In this document: one piece after another, positions 502-30,121 of the stretch
Layout: every line of letters begins with the position of its first letter
How positions within the stretch are numbered: position 1 is the stretch's first letter
Assembly (NCBI GenBank): GCA_027314665.1
Contig: DAHVAK010000270.1
Span: 1-34,713, forward strand
Length of the DNA stretch: 34,713 bases
Direction: 5' to 3'
Source of the DNA: Spirochaetales bacterium
Lineage (GTDB): Bacteria > Spirochaetota > Spirochaetia > DAHUYW01
Notes under the pieces: generated by a model
Told to the model about the DNA's origin: nothing
What the model saw: only the letters and a program-made list of their open reading frames with translations
Databases searched by the model: none
Made by a program: the position numbers and the translations under genes

Positions 502-510
502 GATGCGACT

Positions 511-614
511 ATTCTACTCGCCAATCGTCACGAAAGTGTCACGGGGCCCGAGAGGTTCCCGCCCCCGCAAGGTGAATCTTTCGTGATACTTTCGTGATCG
601 TCTAGCTTTATATT
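511..614. promoter_or_regulatory. Divergent promoter region with matched 16-bp elements (CGTGAyACTTTCGTGA) in inverted orientation
   Basis: Plus element 582-597 CGTGATACTTTCGTGA, 11 nt gap, TATATT 609-614; minus element 543-528 CGTGACACTTTCGTGA, 11 nt gap, TAGAAT 516-511. 15/16 identity and identical spacing. Confidence 0.55.
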
Positions 615-640
615 CAGGTACAAGGCTACAGGAGGGGGAG

Positions 641-1834
641 GTGCAGATGAGCACAAAGAGCCTCGCTCGCGCAGTCGAGCGAATCGTGAAAGCGGGAGAT
701 CGTGAGCTCTATCCCGGGGCGAAGCTGGTCGCCTGGCTTGAAGGGGCGAAGGAGGCGGACCTCTATCGCATCAACACTTTCAAGGTTGCCGAGGAGCTTG
801 GGGTTGACCGCGCGCGGCTCCTGGAGACCTGCATCCGGCTCGTGGACGACAAGGCGTTCGAGCTGAATTGGGATTTCCACTGCACCGAGTGCAACGCCGT
901 CGCAGGATCTCACCGTCATCTCCAAGAGGCGACCGCGAGCGATCACTGTCCGCTCTGCAACGTCGACTTCCGCAACCAGCTCGACCGCAACGTCGAGGTG
1001 ACCTTCACCCCCTCGCCGAATCTCTACCAGGTAGGCAAGAGGTTCCTCGACGAGCAGACGCGCATCATCGTCGCGCTGCACAAGGAAAAGAAGATCCGCC
1101 TTCCCGAAATCTACGTCTCGGGGCTGGACTGCCTGCAGGTGCCCCTCTTCCGGCAGATCTTCGAGACCGAGACCCTCTCCCTGCGGGAGAGCCTGCGCAT
1201 CGGCCAAGTCTGCATCATGTTCACCGACATCAAGGGCTCGACCGCCCTCTACGATCGCTTCGGGGATTCGGCGGCCTACGGCCTGGTCAGGGATCACTTT
1301 GACCTTCTCTTTCGCAGCATCGAGGAGCACGACGGGGTAGTCGTGAAGACCATCGGGGATTCGGTGATGGCCTCCTTCAAGCGTCCCGCCGACGGAGTGG
1401 CCGCGGCGCTCGCCATCCAGGAGGCCTTCGCGGAGTTCAACCGCCGCGAGAATCTGCGCAACGAGATCCTGGTCAAGGTTGGGCTCCACGCAGGGAGCAC
1501 GATCATGGTCAACCTCAATAACCGTCTCGATTACTTCGGTCAGACCGTGAACATGGCGGCCCGCATCCAGAACACGGCCGAAGGGGGCGAGGTCGTCATC
1601 TCGGAGGCAATCCGAAGCGATCAGGATGTCGTCGAGCGGCTGAGGGGAAGGGTCGCGAATCTCACGAAGAGGCTCGTCGAGCTCAAGGGGATAAGCGGCT
1701 CTCACGCGGTGTACCGCCTCAATTTCGCCGACCGGATTGCGCGAGGCGCGGGGGAGCAGGCGCATCCGGCTCCCGGTGGCAGGGGCCAAGACGCATCGGC
1801 CCGACCCGCCGCGCTGGGCGAGAGGGCTCGATGA
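641..1834 (+). CDS. Class III adenylate/guanylate cyclase (predicted adenylate cyclase) with Cys-rich N-terminal region
   Basis: MFTDIKGSTALYDRFGD, VVKTIGDSVMASF, RLDYFGQTVNMAARI: both metal Asp, substrate Lys/Asp and transition-state Asn/Arg are present. N-terminal CTEC...CPLC pair. SD AGGAGG at 630-635; GTG 641 or ATG 647 start. Confidence 0.9.
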   Translation: MQMSTKSLARAVERIVKAGDRELYPGAKLVAWLEGAKEADLYRINTFKVAEELGVDRARLLETCIRLVDDKAFELNWDFHCTECNAVAGSHRHLQEATASDHCPLCNVDFRNQLDRNVEVTFTPSPNLYQVGKRFLDEQTRIIVALHKEKKIRLPEIYVSGLDCLQVPLFRQIFETETLSLRESLRIGQVCIMFTDIKGSTALYDRFGDSAAYGLVRDHFDLLFRSIEEHDGVVVKTIGDSVMASFKRPADGVAAALAIQEAFAEFNRRENLRNEILVKVGLHAGSTIMVNLNNRLDYFGQTVNMAARIQNTAEGGEVVISEAIRSDQDVVERLRGRVANLTKRLVELKGISGSHAVYRLNFADRIARGAGEQAHPAPGGRGQDASARPAALGERAR

Positions 1835-2556
1835 AAACCCTGCTGTGCGGAGCGCGGAGTGTTCTCCTCGCAGGGCTTTTCTCGGTTCTTTTCGTGGCCT
1901 GCGCCCGAGCCTCCGGGCCCTTTCCCGATGCCCCGGCCCTACCGACCCCCGCGGCGGAGAGCTCCTCTCCGCAAACCGCGGTCCTCGCCGGCGGCTGTTT
2001 CTGGGGGATGGAGGGGCTCTTCGAGCGGGTGAAGGGGGTGCTCAACGTGGTTTCGGGCTACTCCGGCGGAAGCGCCGCGACCGCCCACTACGAGATGGTG
2101 AGCACGGGCACCACCGGTCACGCCGAATCGATCGAGATCACCTATGACCCGGGGGTGGTCGGATTTGGGACGCTTCTCAAGATCTTTTTCTCGATCGCCG
2201 AGAACCCGACCGAGCTCAACTATCAAGGACCCGACTACGGCACCCAGTACCGCTCAGGCATCTTCTATCAGAGCGCGTACCAAAAGCGATTGGCCGAGGA
2301 CTATATCCGCGCCCTCGAGAGGGCGAAGTACTATTCCAAGCCGATCGTGACCGAGGTGGTTCCCCTCGAGGCCTTCTATCCGGCGGAAGCTTATCACCAG
2401 CACTTCCTCGACAAGCACCCCAACGATCCCTACATCGTGATGTGGGATATCCCCAAGCTCAAGACCCTCGCGCGGGTCTATCCGACCCTCGTCGCCGAGC
2501 GCTACCGCTCCGGAGGGCTCATCCCGGGCGACTGGCGGGGCGCCGCCGGGCTGTAG
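1831..2556 (+). CDS. msrA: Peptide-methionine (S)-S-oxide reductase MsrA, predicted exported/lipoprotein
   Basis: GCFWGMEGLFERVKGVLNVVSGYSGG, GHAESIEITYDP, NPTELNYQGPDYGTQYRS; N-terminal hydrophobic segment ending FVAC. ATGA overlap with the cyclase stop. Confidence 0.95.
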   Translation: MKTLLCGARSVLLAGLFSVLFVACARASGPFPDAPALPTPAAESSSPQTAVLAGGCFWGMEGLFERVKGVLNVVSGYSGGSAATAHYEMVSTGTTGHAESIEITYDPGVVGFGTLLKIFFSIAENPTELNYQGPDYGTQYRSGIFYQSAYQKRLAEDYIRALERAKYYSKPIVTEVVPLEAFYPAEAYHQHFLDKHPNDPYIVMWDIPKLKTLARVYPTLVAERYRSGGLIPGDWRGAAGL

Positions 2557-2576
2557 GCGGCCGCGCGCCCCTTTTT
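2537..2576 (+). terminator. Intrinsic terminator of the cyclase-msrA unit
   Basis: GGGGCGC (2537-2543) pairs with GCGCCCC (2565-2571), further GC pairing inside, followed by TTTTT 2572-2576, overlapping the msrA 3' end. Confidence 0.5.
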
Positions 2577-3594
2577 CAGCCGACGAAGTGACAGGCGACG
2601 CGGTGGCCCGAGGCCACCTCCGTAAGCGGCGGCTTCTCCCGCCGACAGAGTTCCTGGACAAGCGGACACCTTCCCGCGAAGGGACAGCCGACCGGGAGGG
2701 AGGTGGCGCTGAAGGGGGCGCCGAGGGCGCCGCTTCGCTGGGGAAGGGGTCGATCCCATCGGGGGATCGAGTTGTAGAGGAGCTGGGAGTAGGGGTGGAG
2801 GGGGCGCTCCATGAGGTTGCGCGAGGGCGCCTCCTCCATGAGGCTCCCCCCATAGAGAACCCCGATTCGATCGGCCATGTAGGAGACGACCGTCAGGTCG
2901 TGCGCGATGAAGAGGATTGTGAGATTGAAGCGCCTCTTCAAGTCCACCAGTAGGTTGAGGATCTGCCCCTGAATGGAGACGTCGAGGGCGCTCACTACCT
3001 CGTCGCAGATGAGGGCCACCGGGCGGTAGACCAGAGCCCGGGCGAGGGAGATGCGCTGCCGCGGCCCGCCGGAGAACTCCGCCGGGCGCCGGGCGAGGTC
3101 GCCCTCGCGCAGGCCCACCGCCGCGAGGACCTCTCGCACGCGAGCCTCGAGCTCCTCGCGGCTCATCGCCCGCGGGCCGTAGGGCACCCCCGCAGTGAGG
3201 ATCCGGGAGACGCTCATGCGCGGATCCAGCGAGGCGGCGGGGTCTTGAAAGACGTACTTGACCTCGGAGCGGAAGTGACGGAGGAGCGAGGGATCGGCTC
3301 GGCTGATCTCCCAGACCTCCGGGAAACCCTCCCCGGAATGCCCGCCGCCGGGCGTGTAGACGATCCTGCCCGAGGTGTGGGGCACCAGCTGCACGATGGT
3401 GCGCGCGACCGTCGTCTTTCCCGAGCCCGACTCGCCTACCAGTCCGTAGGTCTCCCCGCGTCGGATCTCGAGGCTTACCCCGTTCACCGCCCAGACGTGA
3501 CGCCCCGCCGAGGCAAAAAGCCCCGCCTCGAGGTTGAAGACCTTCGTGACCTCGTGCAGGCGGATGAGGGCCTCATCGCCGGCCGCGCGCGGGC

Positions 3595-3598
<4 letters not shown>
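2576..3598 (-). CDS. oppF: Oligopeptide ABC transporter ATP-binding protein (OppF-like)
   Basis: Walker A GESGSGKTT, FSGGPRQR signature, Walker B ALICDE, C-terminal oligo_HPY-like GCPFAGRCPL. Confidence 0.88.
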
Positions 3599-4786
<1,188 letters not shown>

Positions 4787-4794
<8 letters not shown>

Positions 4795-5869
4795 GGCGGC
4801 GCTCCCTCCAGTTCGGATCGAAGGCGTCGCGCAGGAGCTCGCCGAGGAAGTTGAAGGAGACCGCGACGAGGATGAGGAAGATCCCGGGGATGAAGAGCCA
4901 AGGGAAGGAGACGAGGTTCGTGAGGGTAGTCGCGTCGCGGCTGATCATGCTCCCCCAGCTCACCGCCGGGGCGGAGATCCCGAGCCCCAGGTAGGAGAGG
5001 ATGGTCTCCCCGAGGATGAAGCCGGGAATCCCCAGGGTAACGCTCACGATCAGGATCGACGAGATCTGCGGAATGATGTGCTTGAACAGGATCGGCAGGG
5101 CCGGCATCGACTCAAGCTCGGCGTTGGCGACGAAATCGTTGCGCTTCACCGCGTGGACCATCCCGCGGATCATGCGGGCGGTGCCCGGCCAGCCGACGAA
5201 GGAAAGGATCACCGTGATGAGGGCGTAGGTCTGGCCCGGGTCGAGGTTGGTGCTCAGGATCGAGCGCAGGAAGAGGATGAGGTAGAGCCCGGGGATGAGG
5301 ATGATGAACTCGCACAGGCGCATGATGAGCCAGTCCCACAGCCCTCCGAAGTAACCGGCCAGGCCCCCGAAGATGAGGGCGAGGGTGAGCGAGATCGCCA
5401 CCCCCACGAACCCGATCGTGAGGGAGATGCGCGAGCCGTAGAGGATGCGGCTGAAGATGTCGCGCCCCAAGTTGTCGGTTCCGAACAGGAAGACCGGCGA
5501 GGCCCCGCTCGCAGGATCCCTGATATAGTCGGTACCGAAGAGGTGGGTCCGCATCGGGATGAGATTCCAGAGCCTGACCTCGGGGCCGACGGCTAAGAGG
5601 CCCACGCGAGCGACCTCGCCCTTCACGCGGACATAGGTGCGCGCAACCGGATTCAGCATCACCATCGTCGCGGCCTGGGGCCCGAAGCCCAGCTTCTGCG
5701 AGTACCACACCACGTTGGGCGGCTGATCGGAGTGGCCGACGAATTGCTCATTCGGGCCGTAGGGGGCGATGAACTCGCAGAAGACCATCCCCAGGTAGAG
5801 GAGGACCAGGATGATGAAGGAGGCGAGCGCGATCGGCCTTCCGGGTAGGAGCTTCCAGAAGCGCTTCAT
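4787..5869 (-). CDS. oppC: Oligopeptide ABC transporter permease (OppC-like)
   Basis: LFGTDNLGRDIFSRILYGSRISLTIG and EAA-like loop; overlaps neighbours. Confidence 0.88.
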
Positions 5870-6996
5870 GCCGCCGCGTACCTGATCCGCGGATCCACCA
5901 GGGCGAGTGCGATGTCGGAGATGAGCATCCCGAGGAGGATCAGGAAGCTTATGAACATGATGTTCGTCATCACGAGATTGATGTCCTTCTGGAGCACCGC
6001 TTGGTACATCAGCCGCCCGATGCCCGGATAGGAAAAGATGATCTCGAGGATAAGCGAGCCGGAGAAGAGGTCCGCAAGGAGGTTGGAGGAGCTCGTGATG
6101 AAGGGGTTCATCGTGTTGCGGAAGGCGTGGTTGAAGTAGATGCGCGGCTCGGCGATCCCCCGCGAGCGCAGGGCGACGATGTAGGGAGCCCCGAGCTGAT
6201 CGAGCATGGTGGCGCGGATGAGCCGCAAGGATCCCCCGATCCCTCCGAGGAAGGCCCCGATGAGGGGCAGGAAGATGTGGTAGAGGTAGGAGGTGAAGAA
6301 GGCGAAGGCGTTCCCGCCGAAGTCCTGGGAGGGGTAGGCGGTCACGGGAAACCAGCCGGTCGAGGCGGCGAACATCTGCAGGAGCAGGAGCATGAGGATC
6401 CCTGGAAAGGCGTTCAGGAAGAGGCTCACGAAGGCAACCGCCGGGTCGACCTTGGTTCCCGCCTTCGAGGAGAAGTAGATCCCCAGACCGAATGAAAAAA
6501 CCGTGAGGAAGACCAGCGAGATCAGGTTCAGGATTATCGAGTTTTCCATCCGCGTCGAGACGAGAAAGAGCACGGGAGCCCGGGAGATGAGCGATCGCCC
6601 GAGATCGTGCTTCACCACGACCTGGTGCAGCCAGTGAAAGTACTGCAGGTAGAAGGGGCGGTCGAGCCAGAGGCGATGCTTCGCTTCGGCGATCTGCTGG
6701 GCGGTCCAGAGGTTGTTGGTCGACTGGAAGCCCCGCATGCTCACCATCTGAGCGCGCACGTACTCGTCGACGATGTCGCCGGGAGCGAGGGACATGAGCC
6801 CGAAGACCGCCAGCCCGAGGAGAAGAAGAACCGTGATCATCGTGAGGAGGCGCCCGGTGAGGAAGGTCGCGAGGGGATGGCGCCGCCGCAAGGCAAAGAG
6901 GAGGTCGCCCGCGGCGAAAAAGGGGTTGGCCCTGAGGCCGGCAGACGGAGTAGGGGAGCCGTCCGGCTGCGAGGCGCTCGTGTGCTCTCTCGACAC
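5866..6996 (-). CDS. oppB: Oligopeptide ABC transporter permease (OppB-like)
   Basis: BPD-type permease: LRLIRATMLDQLGAPYIVALRSRGIAEPRIYFNHAFRNTMNPFITSSS; operon context. Confidence 0.88.
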   Translation of the reverse strand: MSREHTSASQPDGSPTPSAGLRANPFFAAGDLLFALRRRHPLATFLTGRLLTMITVLLLLGLAVFGLMSLAPGDIVDEYVRAQMVSMRGFQSTNNLWTAQQIAEAKHRLWLDRPFYLQYFHWLHQVVVKHDLGRSLISRAPVLFLVSTRMENSIILNLISLVFLTVFSFGLGIYFSSKAGTKVDPAVAFVSLFLNAFPGILMLLLLQMFAASTGWFPVTAYPSQDFGGNAFAFFTSYLYHIFLPLIGAFLGGIGGSLRLIRATMLDQLGAPYIVALRSRGIAEPRIYFNHAFRNTMNPFITSSSNLLADLFSGSLILEIIFSYPGIGRLMYQAVLQKDINLVMTNIMFISFLILLGMLISDIALALVDPRIRYAAA

Positions 6997-26321: not shown

Positions 26322-27578
26322 GTGAAGAAGATACTTATTGTCGACGAGTCTCCGCTTTTTCGAGACTACCTGGCGAAGAAGCTCGTCGAGAAGGGGTTCA
26401 ACGTGGTCCAAGGATTGAACGGGCTCGACGGCGCCATCAAGATGCGCAGAGAGGTGCCCGATCTCGTGATCATGGACTACTACCTTACGCGCAAGAACTC
26501 ACTCGAGCTGCTTCAGGAGAAGAAGGAGAACCCGAACGTCTCCGGAAAGCCGGTGATCATGGTCTCCTCCAAGATCGACAAGGAGAAGCTCGTCGAGCTG
26601 AAGCCCTTCAACGTGAAAAAGATCTTCACGAAGCCGCTCAAGATCGACGTCCTCCTGAAGTCGGTGGCCGAGCTCCTCGGCGAGAGCATCGAGATGGATG
26701 ATACCCCGTGCATCATGGAGGCGCACTTCAACGACGAGATCCTGTTCATCGAGATTGCCCTGGGTTTGAACGCGGAGAAGATCGAGCTACTCCAATACAA
26801 GATCACGGAGCTGCTCGATCTCTATCAGGTGCGCATCCCCAAGGTGCTCCTGATGCTCGCGAACCTGCCGCTGAAGGTCGGCGACTCGGGCAAGCTCCAG
26901 GCGCTTCTCCGAGCGGTTCTCGACTACGGCGGCGCCAATGCCCGCAACGTGAAGATCCTCACCAACGACGATTTCGTAAAAGGCTATGTCTCCTCCCACC
27001 CCGACTTTGCCGCGATCGAGGTCGTGAACTCGCTGGAGAAGGCGATGGACTCCCTCCTCATCGCCAAGCCGGAAGGCAGCGGACGGGATCCGATCGCGCG
27101 CGAGCGCCTCCTCAAGAGCCTCACCCCGAAGTCCGACAAGGAGGAGACGGTCGAGATGCGCTTCGCAGCCGAGGCGGCCTCGCCTCAGGAGAGCCTCGGC
27201 CAGCTCGGAAAGGACGTGACGATCGGGGTGGTCGACGACGACGAGATCATTCGCGAGCTGGTGAAGACGGTGTTTTCCGACACCGGGTGGTCGATCCGCA
27301 CCTACGTGAACGGCAAGGAGTTCGTGAACGACCCGCTTTCGAGCTCCCTCGATCTCATCTTTCTCGATCTGATGATGCCGGAGATGGACGGCTTCCAGGT
27401 GCTCGAGCACCTGAGGCAGCACTCTCTGCGCCTGCCCATCATCATCCTTTCGGCTCTCTCGCAGAAGGAGACGGTCGTGCGGGCGGTGAGCTACGGGGTG
27501 TCCAGCTACATGATAAAGCCGCTGCGCCCCGACCGGATTCTCATGAAGGCGGCGGAGATCCTCAAAACCAATTTCTAA
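26322..27578 (+). CDS. Dual-receiver response regulator (REC - middle domain - REC)
   Basis: REC1: KKILIVDESPLFRDYLAKKL...LVIMDYYL...FTKPL; middle STAS-like region FNDEILFIEIALGLNAEKIELLQYKITELL; REC2: TIGVVDDDEIIRELV...LIFLDLMMPEMDGF...IKPLRP. No DNA-binding output domain. Confidence 0.85.
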   Translation: MKKILIVDESPLFRDYLAKKLVEKGFNVVQGLNGLDGAIKMRREVPDLVIMDYYLTRKNSLELLQEKKENPNVSGKPVIMVSSKIDKEKLVELKPFNVKKIFTKPLKIDVLLKSVAELLGESIEMDDTPCIMEAHFNDEILFIEIALGLNAEKIELLQYKITELLDLYQVRIPKVLLMLANLPLKVGDSGKLQALLRAVLDYGGANARNVKILTNDDFVKGYVSSHPDFAAIEVVNSLEKAMDSLLIAKPEGSGRDPIARERLLKSLTPKSDKEETVEMRFAAEAASPQESLGQLGKDVTIGVVDDDEIIRELVKTVFSDTGWSIRTYVNGKEFVNDPLSSSLDLIFLDLMMPEMDGFQVLEHLRQHSLRLPIIILSALSQKETVVRAVSYGVSSYMIKPLRPDRILMKAAEILKTNF

Positions 27579-27592
27579 AAGGAGAACCGGCG

Positions 27593-30121
27593 ACGAACAA
27601 CCTGGAGATCTACCGGAGCATCTTCCGCGATTCGTCGGTTGGGGTCGTGCTCTTCGGAAAAAGCGGGGCGATTCTCCTGACGAACGAGGCCTTTCGCCGC
27701 ATGGTCGCCAAGAGCGAGGCGGGGCTCGAAAAGATCCTGCTGCTCGATCTGGTGCACCCCGACGACCGCGACTACTGCCTCGGGGCGATCGCGCGCCTGT
27801 CCGGAGGGAAGGCGCGCCATGAGACCGTCGACCTTCGCTACCTCGGCGGGAAAGGGCGCACGGCATGGTGTCGGATCCACTTCTCTCTCGCCGCCCTCCC
27901 CGATCGGCCAGGGCGTTTCATGATCGGCTTGGTCGAAGACATCAGCCAGCAGAAGATCAACGAGGAGCGGATCATCGCTTCCCGGTCGGCGGCGGAGGAG
28001 GCTTTCCGCCAGGCGCACGAGGAGCGAGAGAACGCCGAGCGCGCCCGGCTTGTGTCGCAGAACGCGGCTCAGACGAAGTCCGACTTCCTCGCGAACATGA
28101 GCCACGAGATCCGCACCCCGATCCACACCGTCATCGGCATGAGCGATCTCCTCGCCGAGACTCGCCTCGACGCCGAGCAGCAGGAGTACACCGCGCAGAT
28201 CCAGTTCGCGGCGGAGGTTCTGCTCGGGCTTGTCAACGATGTGCTGGATTTCTCCAAGATCGAGGCGGGGAAGCTCGTCCTTGAATCGATCGATTTCGAT
28301 CTCTACAAGATGGCGGGGGAGGCCGTGGATCTCGTCGCGCTGGAGGCGCACAAGAAGGGCCTGGAGGTGATTCTCTTCATCGAGAACGACGTCCCCCGCT
28401 TCGTTCGCGGCGACCCGGTGAGACTCCGACAGATCGTCATCAACCTGTTCAACAACGCGGTGAAGTTCACCCACGAGGGGGAGATCGTCGTCTCGATCAT
28501 GAAGATTCTCGAGACCGAGACGAGCGTGAAGCTTCATCTCTTCGTGAAGGACACCGGGGTCGGGATCCCCGCCGAGAAGCGCTCGCGCCTCTTCCAGGTC
28601 TTCTCCCAGGTCGATTCTTCGACGACGAGGAAGTACGGCGGCTCGGGGCTCGGGCTCTCGATCTCGAAGAGCCTCGTGGAGCTCATGCAGGGCGAGATCG
28701 GGGTGGAAAGCAAGGAGGGGGTCGGATCCACCTTCTGGTTCAGCATCGAGTTCGGCAAGAGCCTGACGGCGCCGGTCCCCGAATGGGACGACCTCGAGCT
28801 GCTCGCAGGGAAGAAGGCGCTCATCGTCGACGACATCGCCTCCGCCCGAATCGTGGTCGCGCGCTATCTGGAGGGGTGGGGCTGCAGGGTCGTTCAGATC
28901 AACGGCGGGAACGAGGCCCTCGCTGCGATGCGCTCGAGCGCCGAATCCGGCGCGCCCTACGACCTGTGCCTCATCGACCTGCTCATGCCCGGGATGGACG
29001 GCTGGCAGCTCGCGAGCGAGATCAACGCCGACAGGCGGATCAACGGAGCGAAGCTCTTCCTCCTGAGTCCGGCGGGCAAGAGCGGCGAGGAAGCCAAGAT
29101 GAAGCTCCTTGGCTGGTACGACGGATACTTGAGCAAGCCCGTGAAGAAGGGGCTCCTCTTCGACACCCTGCTCCGCGAGTACCGCGATAAGCACGAGCTG
29201 GAGGCCCCTGAGGAGCTCGCGCCGCTTGAGCCGGAGAGTCCGGCGGAGGGACGAGAGTCGGAGCTTCCGAAGGCGCGGCTCCTGGTGGCGGAGGATCACG
29301 AGGTGAACCGCCGCCTTTTTGAGACGATCCTCACGAGCCTGGGCTTCCCGGTCGAGCTTGCGACGAACGGGCGCGAGGCGGTCGCGGCCGTGACCGCGAG
29401 GCCCGCAGGCTACTTTGGGCTCATCTTCATGGACGTTCAGATGCCCGAGATGAACGGCTACGAGGCCGCGACGCGGATTCGCGCGGCGGGCTTCGACATC
29501 CCCATCATCGCCGTGACCGCAAGCGTCACCGAGAGCGAGCGGGAGAGATGCCGTGAGGCGGGCATGTCCGATTTTCTCGGAAAGCCCTTCAAGAAGGGCG
29601 ACCTCGTGCCGGTGCTAGCCGAGTGGCTGAGAGGCTCAAGCGGCGCGTCGCCGCAAGGATCGGCGCCTCCCGGCGCTCCGAGCGCGGGGCAGCCCTTTGC
29701 AGAGGGCAGCGCCCCCGCACGGGGCGCGTCCGACGAGCCGCCGGACCCTGCTTCCGCCGACGGAGATCTCGCGGGCGTCGATCCGGCAATCTTCGACTAT
29801 CGCGAGGCGGTCTCGATCTTCATGGGAAAGTCGGAGGTCGTCGTGCGAATGCTCCATGCCTTCGTGGAGAGGGTGGAGGGACAGCTGCCGAAGATTCGAA
29901 GCGCCCTGTCCTCGGGGGATCTTGCCTCCGCGAAGGCCGAGGCTCACTCGATCAAGGGTGGCGGATGGAACCTGCAGATCCGTCGGGTCGGCGACGCCGC
30001 GGCGAAGCTCGAAGCCGCAGCGGCCGATCAGAACTCGGCCTTCGCCGTGCGGGCCCTCGACCGCCTCGAAGCCGCCTACGCCGAGCTCAAGGCTGCCGTC
30101 GGCGGCCCCCTGCCGGTGTAG
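27593..30121 (+). CDS. Hybrid sensor histidine kinase: PAS - HisKA - HATPase - REC - REC - Hpt
   Basis: PAS-like EIYRSIFRDSSVGVVLFGKSGAILLTNEAF; KSDFLANMSHEIRTPIHTVIGMSDLL; INLFNNAVKFTHEGE; GGSGLGLSISKSLVELM; two RECs (CLIDLLMPGMDGW, IFMDVQMPEMNGY); Hpt AHSIKGGGWNLQ. Start placed at ACG 27593 (see findings); the track start 26708 is read-in. Confidence 0.88.
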   Translation, partial: TNNLEIYRSIFRDSSVGVVLFGKSGAILLTNEAFRRMVAKSEAGLEKILLLDLVHPDDRDYCLGAIARLSGGKARHETVDLRYLGGKGRTAWCRIHFSLAALPDRPGRFMIGLVEDISQQKINEERIIASRSAAEEAFRQAHEERENAERARLVSQNAAQTKSDFLANMSHEIRTPIHTVIGMSDLLAETRLDAEQQEYTAQIQFAAEVLLGLVNDVLDFSKIEAGKLVLESIDFDLYKMAGEAVDLVALEAHKKGLEVILFIENDVPRFVRGDPVRLRQIVINLFNNAVKFTHEGEIVVSIMKILETETSVKLHLFVKDTGVGIPAEKRSRLFQVFSQVDSSTTRKYGGSGLGLSISKSLVELMQGEIGVESKEGVGSTFWFSIEFGKSLTAPVPEWDDLELLAGKKALIVDDIASARIVVARYLEGWGCRVVQINGGNEALAAMRSSAESGAPYDLCLIDLLMPGMDGWQLASEINADRRINGAKLFLLSPAGKSGEEAKMKLLGWYDGYLSKPVKKGLLFDTLLREYRDKHELEAPEELAPLEPESPAEGRESELPKARLLVAEDHEVNRRLFETILTSLGFPVELATNGREAVAAVTARPAGYFGLIFMDVQMPEMNGYEAATRIRAAGFDIPIIAVTASVTESERERCREAGMSDFLGKPFKKGDLVPVLAEWLRGSSGASPQGSAPPGAPSAGQPFAEGSAPARGASDEPPDPASADGDLAGVDPAIFDYREAVSIFMGKSEVVVRMLHAFVERVEGQLPKIRSALSSGDLASAKAEAHSIKGGGWNLQIRRVGDAAAKLEAAAADQNSAFAVRALDRLEAAYAELKAAVGGPLPV

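What the first reader, a model, noticed from the sequence alone, without database searches (positions are those of the whole stretch)
511..614. Mirror-image promoters: the same 16-bp element sits exactly 11 nt upstream of a -10-like hexamer on both sides of msrB | cyclase-msrA
Seen directly: CGTGAyACTTTCGTGA (582-597, +) then 11 nt then TATATT; CGTGACACTTTCGTGA (543-528, -) then 11 nt then TAGAAT. Each element itself contains two direct CGTGA half-sites 11 bp apart, about one helical turn. The positions where a sigma70 -35 would sit read ATACTT/ACACTT, not TTGACA, so an activator or alternative sigma factor is plausible. Inference: a common regulator, perhaps responding to oxidants, co-controls both Msr enzymes and the cyclase. 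The msrB -10 lies only 9 nt from its start codon, so msrB mRNA would be nearly leaderless or its true start is internal.
Basis: partly seen in the sequence, partly recalled or inferred. Interest (0 to 1): 0.62.

Follow-up and report, generated by a model that had tools for sequence, protein, structure and literature searches.

The report
Shared switch for methionine-repair genes
Two mirror-image promoters beside a methionine-repair gene pair carry the same DNA switch, and that switch recurs across spirochaete bacteria next to one particular sensor-and-regulator gene pair, so it is most likely the site where that regulator turns on repair of oxidised proteins outside the cell.

Summary
CGTGAYACTTTCGTGA-N11-TAnnnT lies on both sides of msrB | cyclase-msrA, and exact copies in the 3.6 Mb genome occur only here and in one diverged copy of the same locus (about 0.003 expected by chance). 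A congener has the same layout, with a changed core, at its cyclase, one exported msrB, and a Met-rich lipoprotein-thioredoxin-ccdA operon. An OmpR/PhoB-type response regulator and a histidine kinase are encoded between two of those sites. The kinase was then sought in 297 Spirochaetia genomes and found in 35. At most of these loci the element follows the kinase gene and precedes thioredoxin/ccdA/msrB/msrA genes. In 27 loci not used to find it, the locus-wide best match lies at the kinase stop codon in 21. By genome, 29 of 35 with the kinase have a site, against 2 of 33 without it (P = 4e-11). The layout (11-bp direct repeats in place of the -35, then N11 and the -10) matches the E. coli phoA promoter. 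Best reading: operator of a two-component activator of extracytoplasmic methionine-sulfoxide repair; here unlinked from its regulator, doubled head-to-head, and also on a nucleotide cyclase. Nearest known: Fusobacterium ModRS, whose operator I did not find described.

The parts
582..597 (+). Operator for the cyclase-msrA promoter: two CGTGA half-sites 11 bp apart
   Evidence: Sequence; identical in C20; same layout in the congener and in other families
571..575 (+). Third half-site GGTGA, one helical turn upstream of the cyclase-side operator
   Evidence: Sequence; extra half-sites one or two turns upstream also seen in relatives
609..614 (+). -10 hexamer TATATT of the cyclase-msrA promoter, 11 nt after the operator
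   Evidence: Sequence; identical in C20; TAnnnT at N11 in 37 of the 38 aligned sites, though sites were partly selected by it
528..543 (-). Operator for the msrB promoter: two CGTGA half-sites 11 bp apart
   Evidence: Sequence; identical in C20; CGTGACCTTTCCGTGA at an exported msrB of the congener
511..516 (-). -10 hexamer TAGAAT of the msrB promoter, 9 nt before the ATG
   Evidence: Sequence; identical in C20
1..501 (-). Exported MsrB (SelR domain), cut by the contig end
   Evidence: Pfam PF01641, E 3e-34
631..641 (+). Shine-Dalgarno-like stretch of the cyclase
   Evidence: Sequence
647..1834 (+). Class III nucleotide cyclase with N-terminal DUF5939 (cysteine-rich)
   Evidence: Pfam PF00211 and PF19363; start supported by C20 and G001 orthologues
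1831..2556 (+). MsrA with an N-terminal signal-like stretch
   Evidence: Pfam PF01625, E 8e-57

Best explanation
The two elements are operators for one OmpR/PhoB-family response regulator (in this genome the 264-aa protein on contig C6, next to a HAMP histidine kinase). A dimer of the phosphorylated regulator binds the head-to-tail 11-bp repeats where a -35 would be, recruits sigma70-type polymerase to the TAnnnT 11 nt downstream, and switches on msrB in one direction and cyclase-msrA in the other. The regulon repairs oxidised methionine outside the cytoplasm; in relatives it also holds a Met-rich thioredoxin-like lipoprotein and the electron carrier CcdA. Shown by sequence: site, geometry, conservation, linkage to the regulator, gene content. 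Inferred: binding, activation, the oxidant signal, and the role of the cyclase (a nucleotide signal made when the envelope is oxidised).
For: Same layout in the C20 copy, with operators and -10s unchanged while cyclase third positions are 67% identical. In congener G001 the sites flank a response regulator and kinase and precede the cyclase and a Met-rich lipoprotein/thioredoxin/CcdA operon; an exported msrB has one too. G000 has a 73% regulator orthologue; all other regulators in the two genomes are 43% or less. Kinase found in 35 of 297 class genomes. With a matrix trained only on this genus, the top hit of 21 of 27 independent loci lies at the kinase stop. Sites in 29/35 kinase-bearing versus 2/33 other genomes, P = 4e-11. 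Downstream genes are Trx, CcdA, MsrB, MsrA; 28 of 36 loci show an Msr. Off-locus sites precede another Met-rich thioredoxin protein; in another class a perfect site precedes ccdA. The regulator's DNA-binding segment HTVN(T/S)HINRLR is nearly invariant. Layout equals the E. coli phoA promoter.
Against: No binding, expression or start-site data. In the window's own genome the regulator is unlinked and its locus has no site. Six of 27 independent loci deviate (G216, G198, G231, G163, G101, G207). The matrix used scored the -10, so the N11 spacing is partly selected for. The oxidant signal is inferred only.
Confidence: 0.85

Rival explanations
1. An alternative (ECF-type) sigma factor recognises the element as its -35 and the TAnnnT as its -10.
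For: No TTGACA-like -35; fixed distance to the -10.
Against: The linked regulator is a two-component pair; two to four tandem half-sites at 11 bp and a sigma70-like TAnnnT. Sigma genes were not sought with a profile.
Confidence: 0.05
2. The element is a pho box and the system is the phosphate regulon (PhoB/PhoR).
For: Same architecture as phoA; nearest solved relative of the regulator is RegX3.
Against: Targets are Trx/CcdA/MsrA/MsrB, no phosphate-uptake genes were seen among the recognised or inspected targets, and most genomes have only one or two sites. The kinase has HAMP-HisKA-HATPase and no PAS domain was reported.
Confidence: 0.05
3. The same operator is bound but as a repressor, or by a second regulator, with the two-component system only a neighbour.
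For: In G000 the regulator is unlinked from the sites; ModS deletion raises trx/ccdA in Fusobacterium, so signs can be complex (PMC9239216).
Against: The site replaces the -35, an activator position; presence of kinase and site co-varies across the class.
Confidence: 0.04
4. Chance resemblance, or a recent inverted duplication of one promoter without function.
For: The two window copies are nearly identical.
Against: Unchanged in C20 while flanks and third codon positions diverged; recurrence in other families and in another class.
Confidence: 0.01

Closest known systems
Fusobacterium nucleatum ModRS with MsrAB, Trx and CcdA (PMC9239216; PMC12288474)
   Same: A two-component system encoded beside Trx-like, CcdA and Msr genes; its regulator activates trx and ccdA; locus induced by H2O2.
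   Different: Other phylum; gene order differs (regulator pair downstream of a fused msrAB); no operator was found in the passages read; no cyclase. Orthology could not be tested.
OrhK/OrhR of uropathogenic E. coli (PMC8550376)
   Same: Two-component system that directly activates a methionine sulfoxide reductase system with a small Met-rich peptide, in response to H2O2.
   Different: Proposed operator is an inverted repeat TCACA-N15-TGTGA upstream of a -35 box, not direct repeats in place of it.
PhoB pho box, E. coli phoA promoter
   Same: TGTCA-N6-TGTCA-N11-TATAGT: same period, orientation and distance to the -10; a 22-bp site of two 11-bp direct repeats (PMC3978041).
   Different: Half-site TGTCA rather than TGTGA/TGTTA; phosphate genes rather than redox repair genes.
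ArcA box (PMC3798270)
   Same: Direct repeats 11 bp centre to centre with extra repeats one or two turns away.
   Different: No fixed position or orientation relative to the promoter; global carbon-oxidation regulon.

Membership tests
OmpR/PhoB-family direct-repeat operator at an activator (-35) position | Two or more direct-repeat half-sites about 11 bp apart | tested here: met
OmpR/PhoB-family direct-repeat operator at an activator (-35) position | Replaces the -35 at a fixed distance from a sigma70-like -10 | tested here: met
   N11-TAnnnT on both sides here and in most relatives; same in phoA
OmpR/PhoB-family direct-repeat operator at an activator (-35) position | Linked or co-occurring regulator with receiver and winged-helix Trans_reg_C domains | tested here: met
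   PF00072 + PF00486; co-occurrence of its kinase with sites
OmpR/PhoB-family direct-repeat operator at an activator (-35) position | Protein binds the site and activates transcription | not testable with these tools
   Needs footprinting and reporter assays
ModRS-type two-component control of Msr/Trx/CcdA | Two-component genes in one locus with Trx-like, CcdA and Msr genes | tested here: met
   Most of 36 loci; in the window's own genome the pair is unlinked
ModRS-type two-component control of Msr/Trx/CcdA | Common descent with F. nucleatum ModR/ModS | not tested
ModRS-type two-component control of Msr/Trx/CcdA | Induced by H2O2 or a related oxidant | not testable with these tools
   Needs expression data
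Phosphate (Pho) regulon | Sites upstream of phosphate uptake or scavenging genes | tested here: not met
   Recognised and inspected targets are Trx, CcdA, MsrB, MsrA, cyclase
ECF sigma-factor promoter | Linked sigma/anti-sigma genes | tested here: inconclusive
   Linked regulators are a two-component pair, but sigma genes were not searched with a profile

The most novel reading that the evidence does not exclude
A spirochaete-wide two-component regulon for extracytoplasmic methionine-sulfoxide repair, with its operator now defined, in which one lineage has put a class III nucleotide cyclase with a cysteine-rich domain under the same switch, so that envelope oxidation is converted into a cAMP or cGMP signal.
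Probability: 0.4. Interest if true: 0.75.

Novelty: new variant of a known kind. Interest (0 to 1): 0.62.

Why it matters
It gives a sequence-level operator for a two-component system controlling methionine-sulfoxide repair across spirochaetes, a group for which my literature search returned no description of such control. It makes a ModRS-type system directly testable: site, regulator and targets are named. It also shows a rewired case, with the regulator gone from the locus, the operator doubled head to head and a cyclase added, which may link oxidative damage outside the cell to a second messenger.

Tried and rejected
Exact 16-mer as the regulon signature: too narrow; the 2-3 mismatch hits elsewhere in G000 and G001 (C181, C189, C226 and others) lack a convincing -10 at N11 and look like chance. 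DUF5939 cyclase orthologues in G038 and G024: neighbouring genes are unrelated and no element was seen. Cytoplasmic-type msrA/msrB copies of G000 and G001, and the second exported msrB (C175) and the msrA (C22) of G001, have no element. Malic-enzyme test of C20: no near-identical second copy, so contaminant versus true duplicate is unresolved. Papers on DUF5939 cyclases: none found.

Full report
Observation. Both 16-bp elements, both 11-nt spacers and both TAnnnT hexamers are present. In the 3.6 Mb bin the exact 16-mer occurs four times: twice here and twice in contig C20. C20 carries a diverged copy of the same divergent locus. Its cyclase is 83% identical in protein and 67% at third codon positions, yet both elements and both -10 hexamers are unchanged. 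About 0.003 exact matches are expected by chance (own arithmetic).

Genus. The only congener held (G001; deposited as Spirochaetia bacterium JOPF006) has the layout three times, with a changed core. CGTGACCTTTCCGTTA-N11-TACATT precedes the orthologous cyclase. CGTGACGGTTGCGTGA-N11-TACCTT precedes a Met-rich lipoprotein, a thioredoxin-type protein and CcdA. CGTGACCTTTCCGTGA-N11-TATCCT precedes an exported MsrB on another contig. Between the first two sites lie an OmpR/PhoB-type response regulator and a HAMP histidine kinase. The window's genome has a 73% regulator orthologue next to its own kinase on contig C6, not linked to the msr locus and without a site there. Every other regulator in these two genomes is 43% identical or less.

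Class. A looser pattern turned up sites in other families, several between an orthologous kinase and a Met-rich thioredoxin/CcdA operon. The kinase profile (A2) was then used without reference to the motif. It occurs in 35 of 297 Spirochaetia genomes, and the loci were fetched. A weight matrix trained only on the seven sites of the window's genus was run over both strands of each locus. In the 27 loci that had not supplied seed kinases, the best hit of the whole locus lies within -60 to +150 nt of the kinase stop in 21. The shuffled maximum was 17.0 (median 8.7); the best scores of those 21 were 15.8 to 33.1. The six others: G216 and G198 have the site further downstream, directly before thioredoxin or ccdA; G231 has repeats before a divergent msrA, without TAnnnT at N11; G163 has one site before msrA and one divergent from the regulator; G101 has the repeats with a TATATT 22 nt away; G207 has none.

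Co-occurrence. With the pattern YGTGAYAnTTYYGTGA-N11-TAnnnT at up to one mismatch, 29 of 35 genomes with the kinase have a site and 2 of 33 without it; Fisher P = 4e-11, or 1e-9 after dropping genomes that supplied seed sites. One of the two exceptions (G015) is again a thioredoxin/CcdA operon, on a short contig.

Gene content. The usual order is regulator, kinase, [site], Met-rich thioredoxin-like lipoprotein, CcdA, MsrB, MsrA; 28 of 36 loci show MsrA and/or MsrB. G101, G163 and G217 have Msr genes directly after the site. Off-locus sites in G111, G078 and G198 precede another Met-rich thioredoxin protein. In a different class (G299) a perfect site lies before ccdA, divergent from the regulator. 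So the site follows the redox genes, not the end of the kinase gene.

Site anatomy. In 38 aligned sites the G, T and A of both half-sites are invariant, TT is strong before each half-site, a GTTTA or YGTGA often lies two turns upstream, and the -10 consensus is TACCTT. These sites were partly selected by pattern, so the invariance is somewhat inflated. The first target gene usually starts about 19 nt after the -10 with a good ribosome site; in the window's msrB, C20 msrB, G082 and G163 the gap is 6-9 nt, so those messages would be leaderless or nearly so. The E. coli phoA promoter has TGTCA-N6-TGTCA-N11-TATAGT: the same period, orientation and distance. ArcA shows that extra repeats one or two turns away are normal in this regulator family (PMC3798270).

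Mechanism. Shown here: site, geometry, conservation, linkage to one regulator/kinase pair, target genes. Inferred: the phosphorylated regulator binds head-to-tail repeats in place of the -35 and recruits polymerase; the signal is oxidation in the envelope; the cyclase adds a nucleotide signal in this lineage. The cyclase was not recognised at any fetched kinase locus outside the genus.

Relation to known systems. It works like ModRS of Fusobacterium, where the regulator activates trx and ccdA and the locus responds to H2O2 (PMC9239216), and like OrhKR of uropathogenic E. coli, which controls an Msr system with a Met-rich peptide (PMC8550376). Orthology to ModRS could not be tested. It is not a pho regulon by target genes, and a sigma-factor promoter is unlikely from the linked regulator and the -10.

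Limits. No binding or expression data exist. The MAG is 91% complete and 6% contaminated. Whether C20 is a second locus in the same cell is open. The matrix includes the -10; what was not scored is the position of the hit at the kinase stop, and that is the independent part of the result.

Noticed in passing
G000:C20 (L065:1-1761): A second, diverged copy of the whole divergent unit (cyclase, both elements, exported msrB) in the same bin; either a duplicate locus or a sister-strain contig. Its malic enzyme has no near-identical second copy in the bin.
   Followed up: partly
window 502-516; also L065, G082 and G163 loci: The -10 ends only 6-9 nt before the start codon at several of these promoters, suggesting leaderless or nearly leaderless messages in some high-GC spirochaetes.
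   Followed up: partly
L069:6781-9003 (minus strand), G001:C97: A second DUF5939-like cyclase in the congener, with an extra N-terminal part.
   Followed up: no
L066:3096-3330 (minus strand), G001:C77: Small Met-rich lipoprotein (repeats of M every 5-10 residues) directly under an element; resembles a sacrificial methionine sink such as MrpX (resemblance recalled via PMC8550376).
   Followed up: partly
window 27219-27563 and 29273-29650: Receiver-domain stretches inside longer open frames (446 and 1139 aa), unrelated to the finding.
   Followed up: no
window 2576-6996 (minus strand): Four consecutive ORFs that read as an oligopeptide-type ABC transporter (two ATPases, two permeases), convergent with msrA.
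   Followed up: no
L066:5763-6830 (minus strand), G001:C77: In the congener the gene divergent from the cyclase is a DUF1223 protein leading into the regulator-kinase genes, instead of msrB.
   Followed up: no
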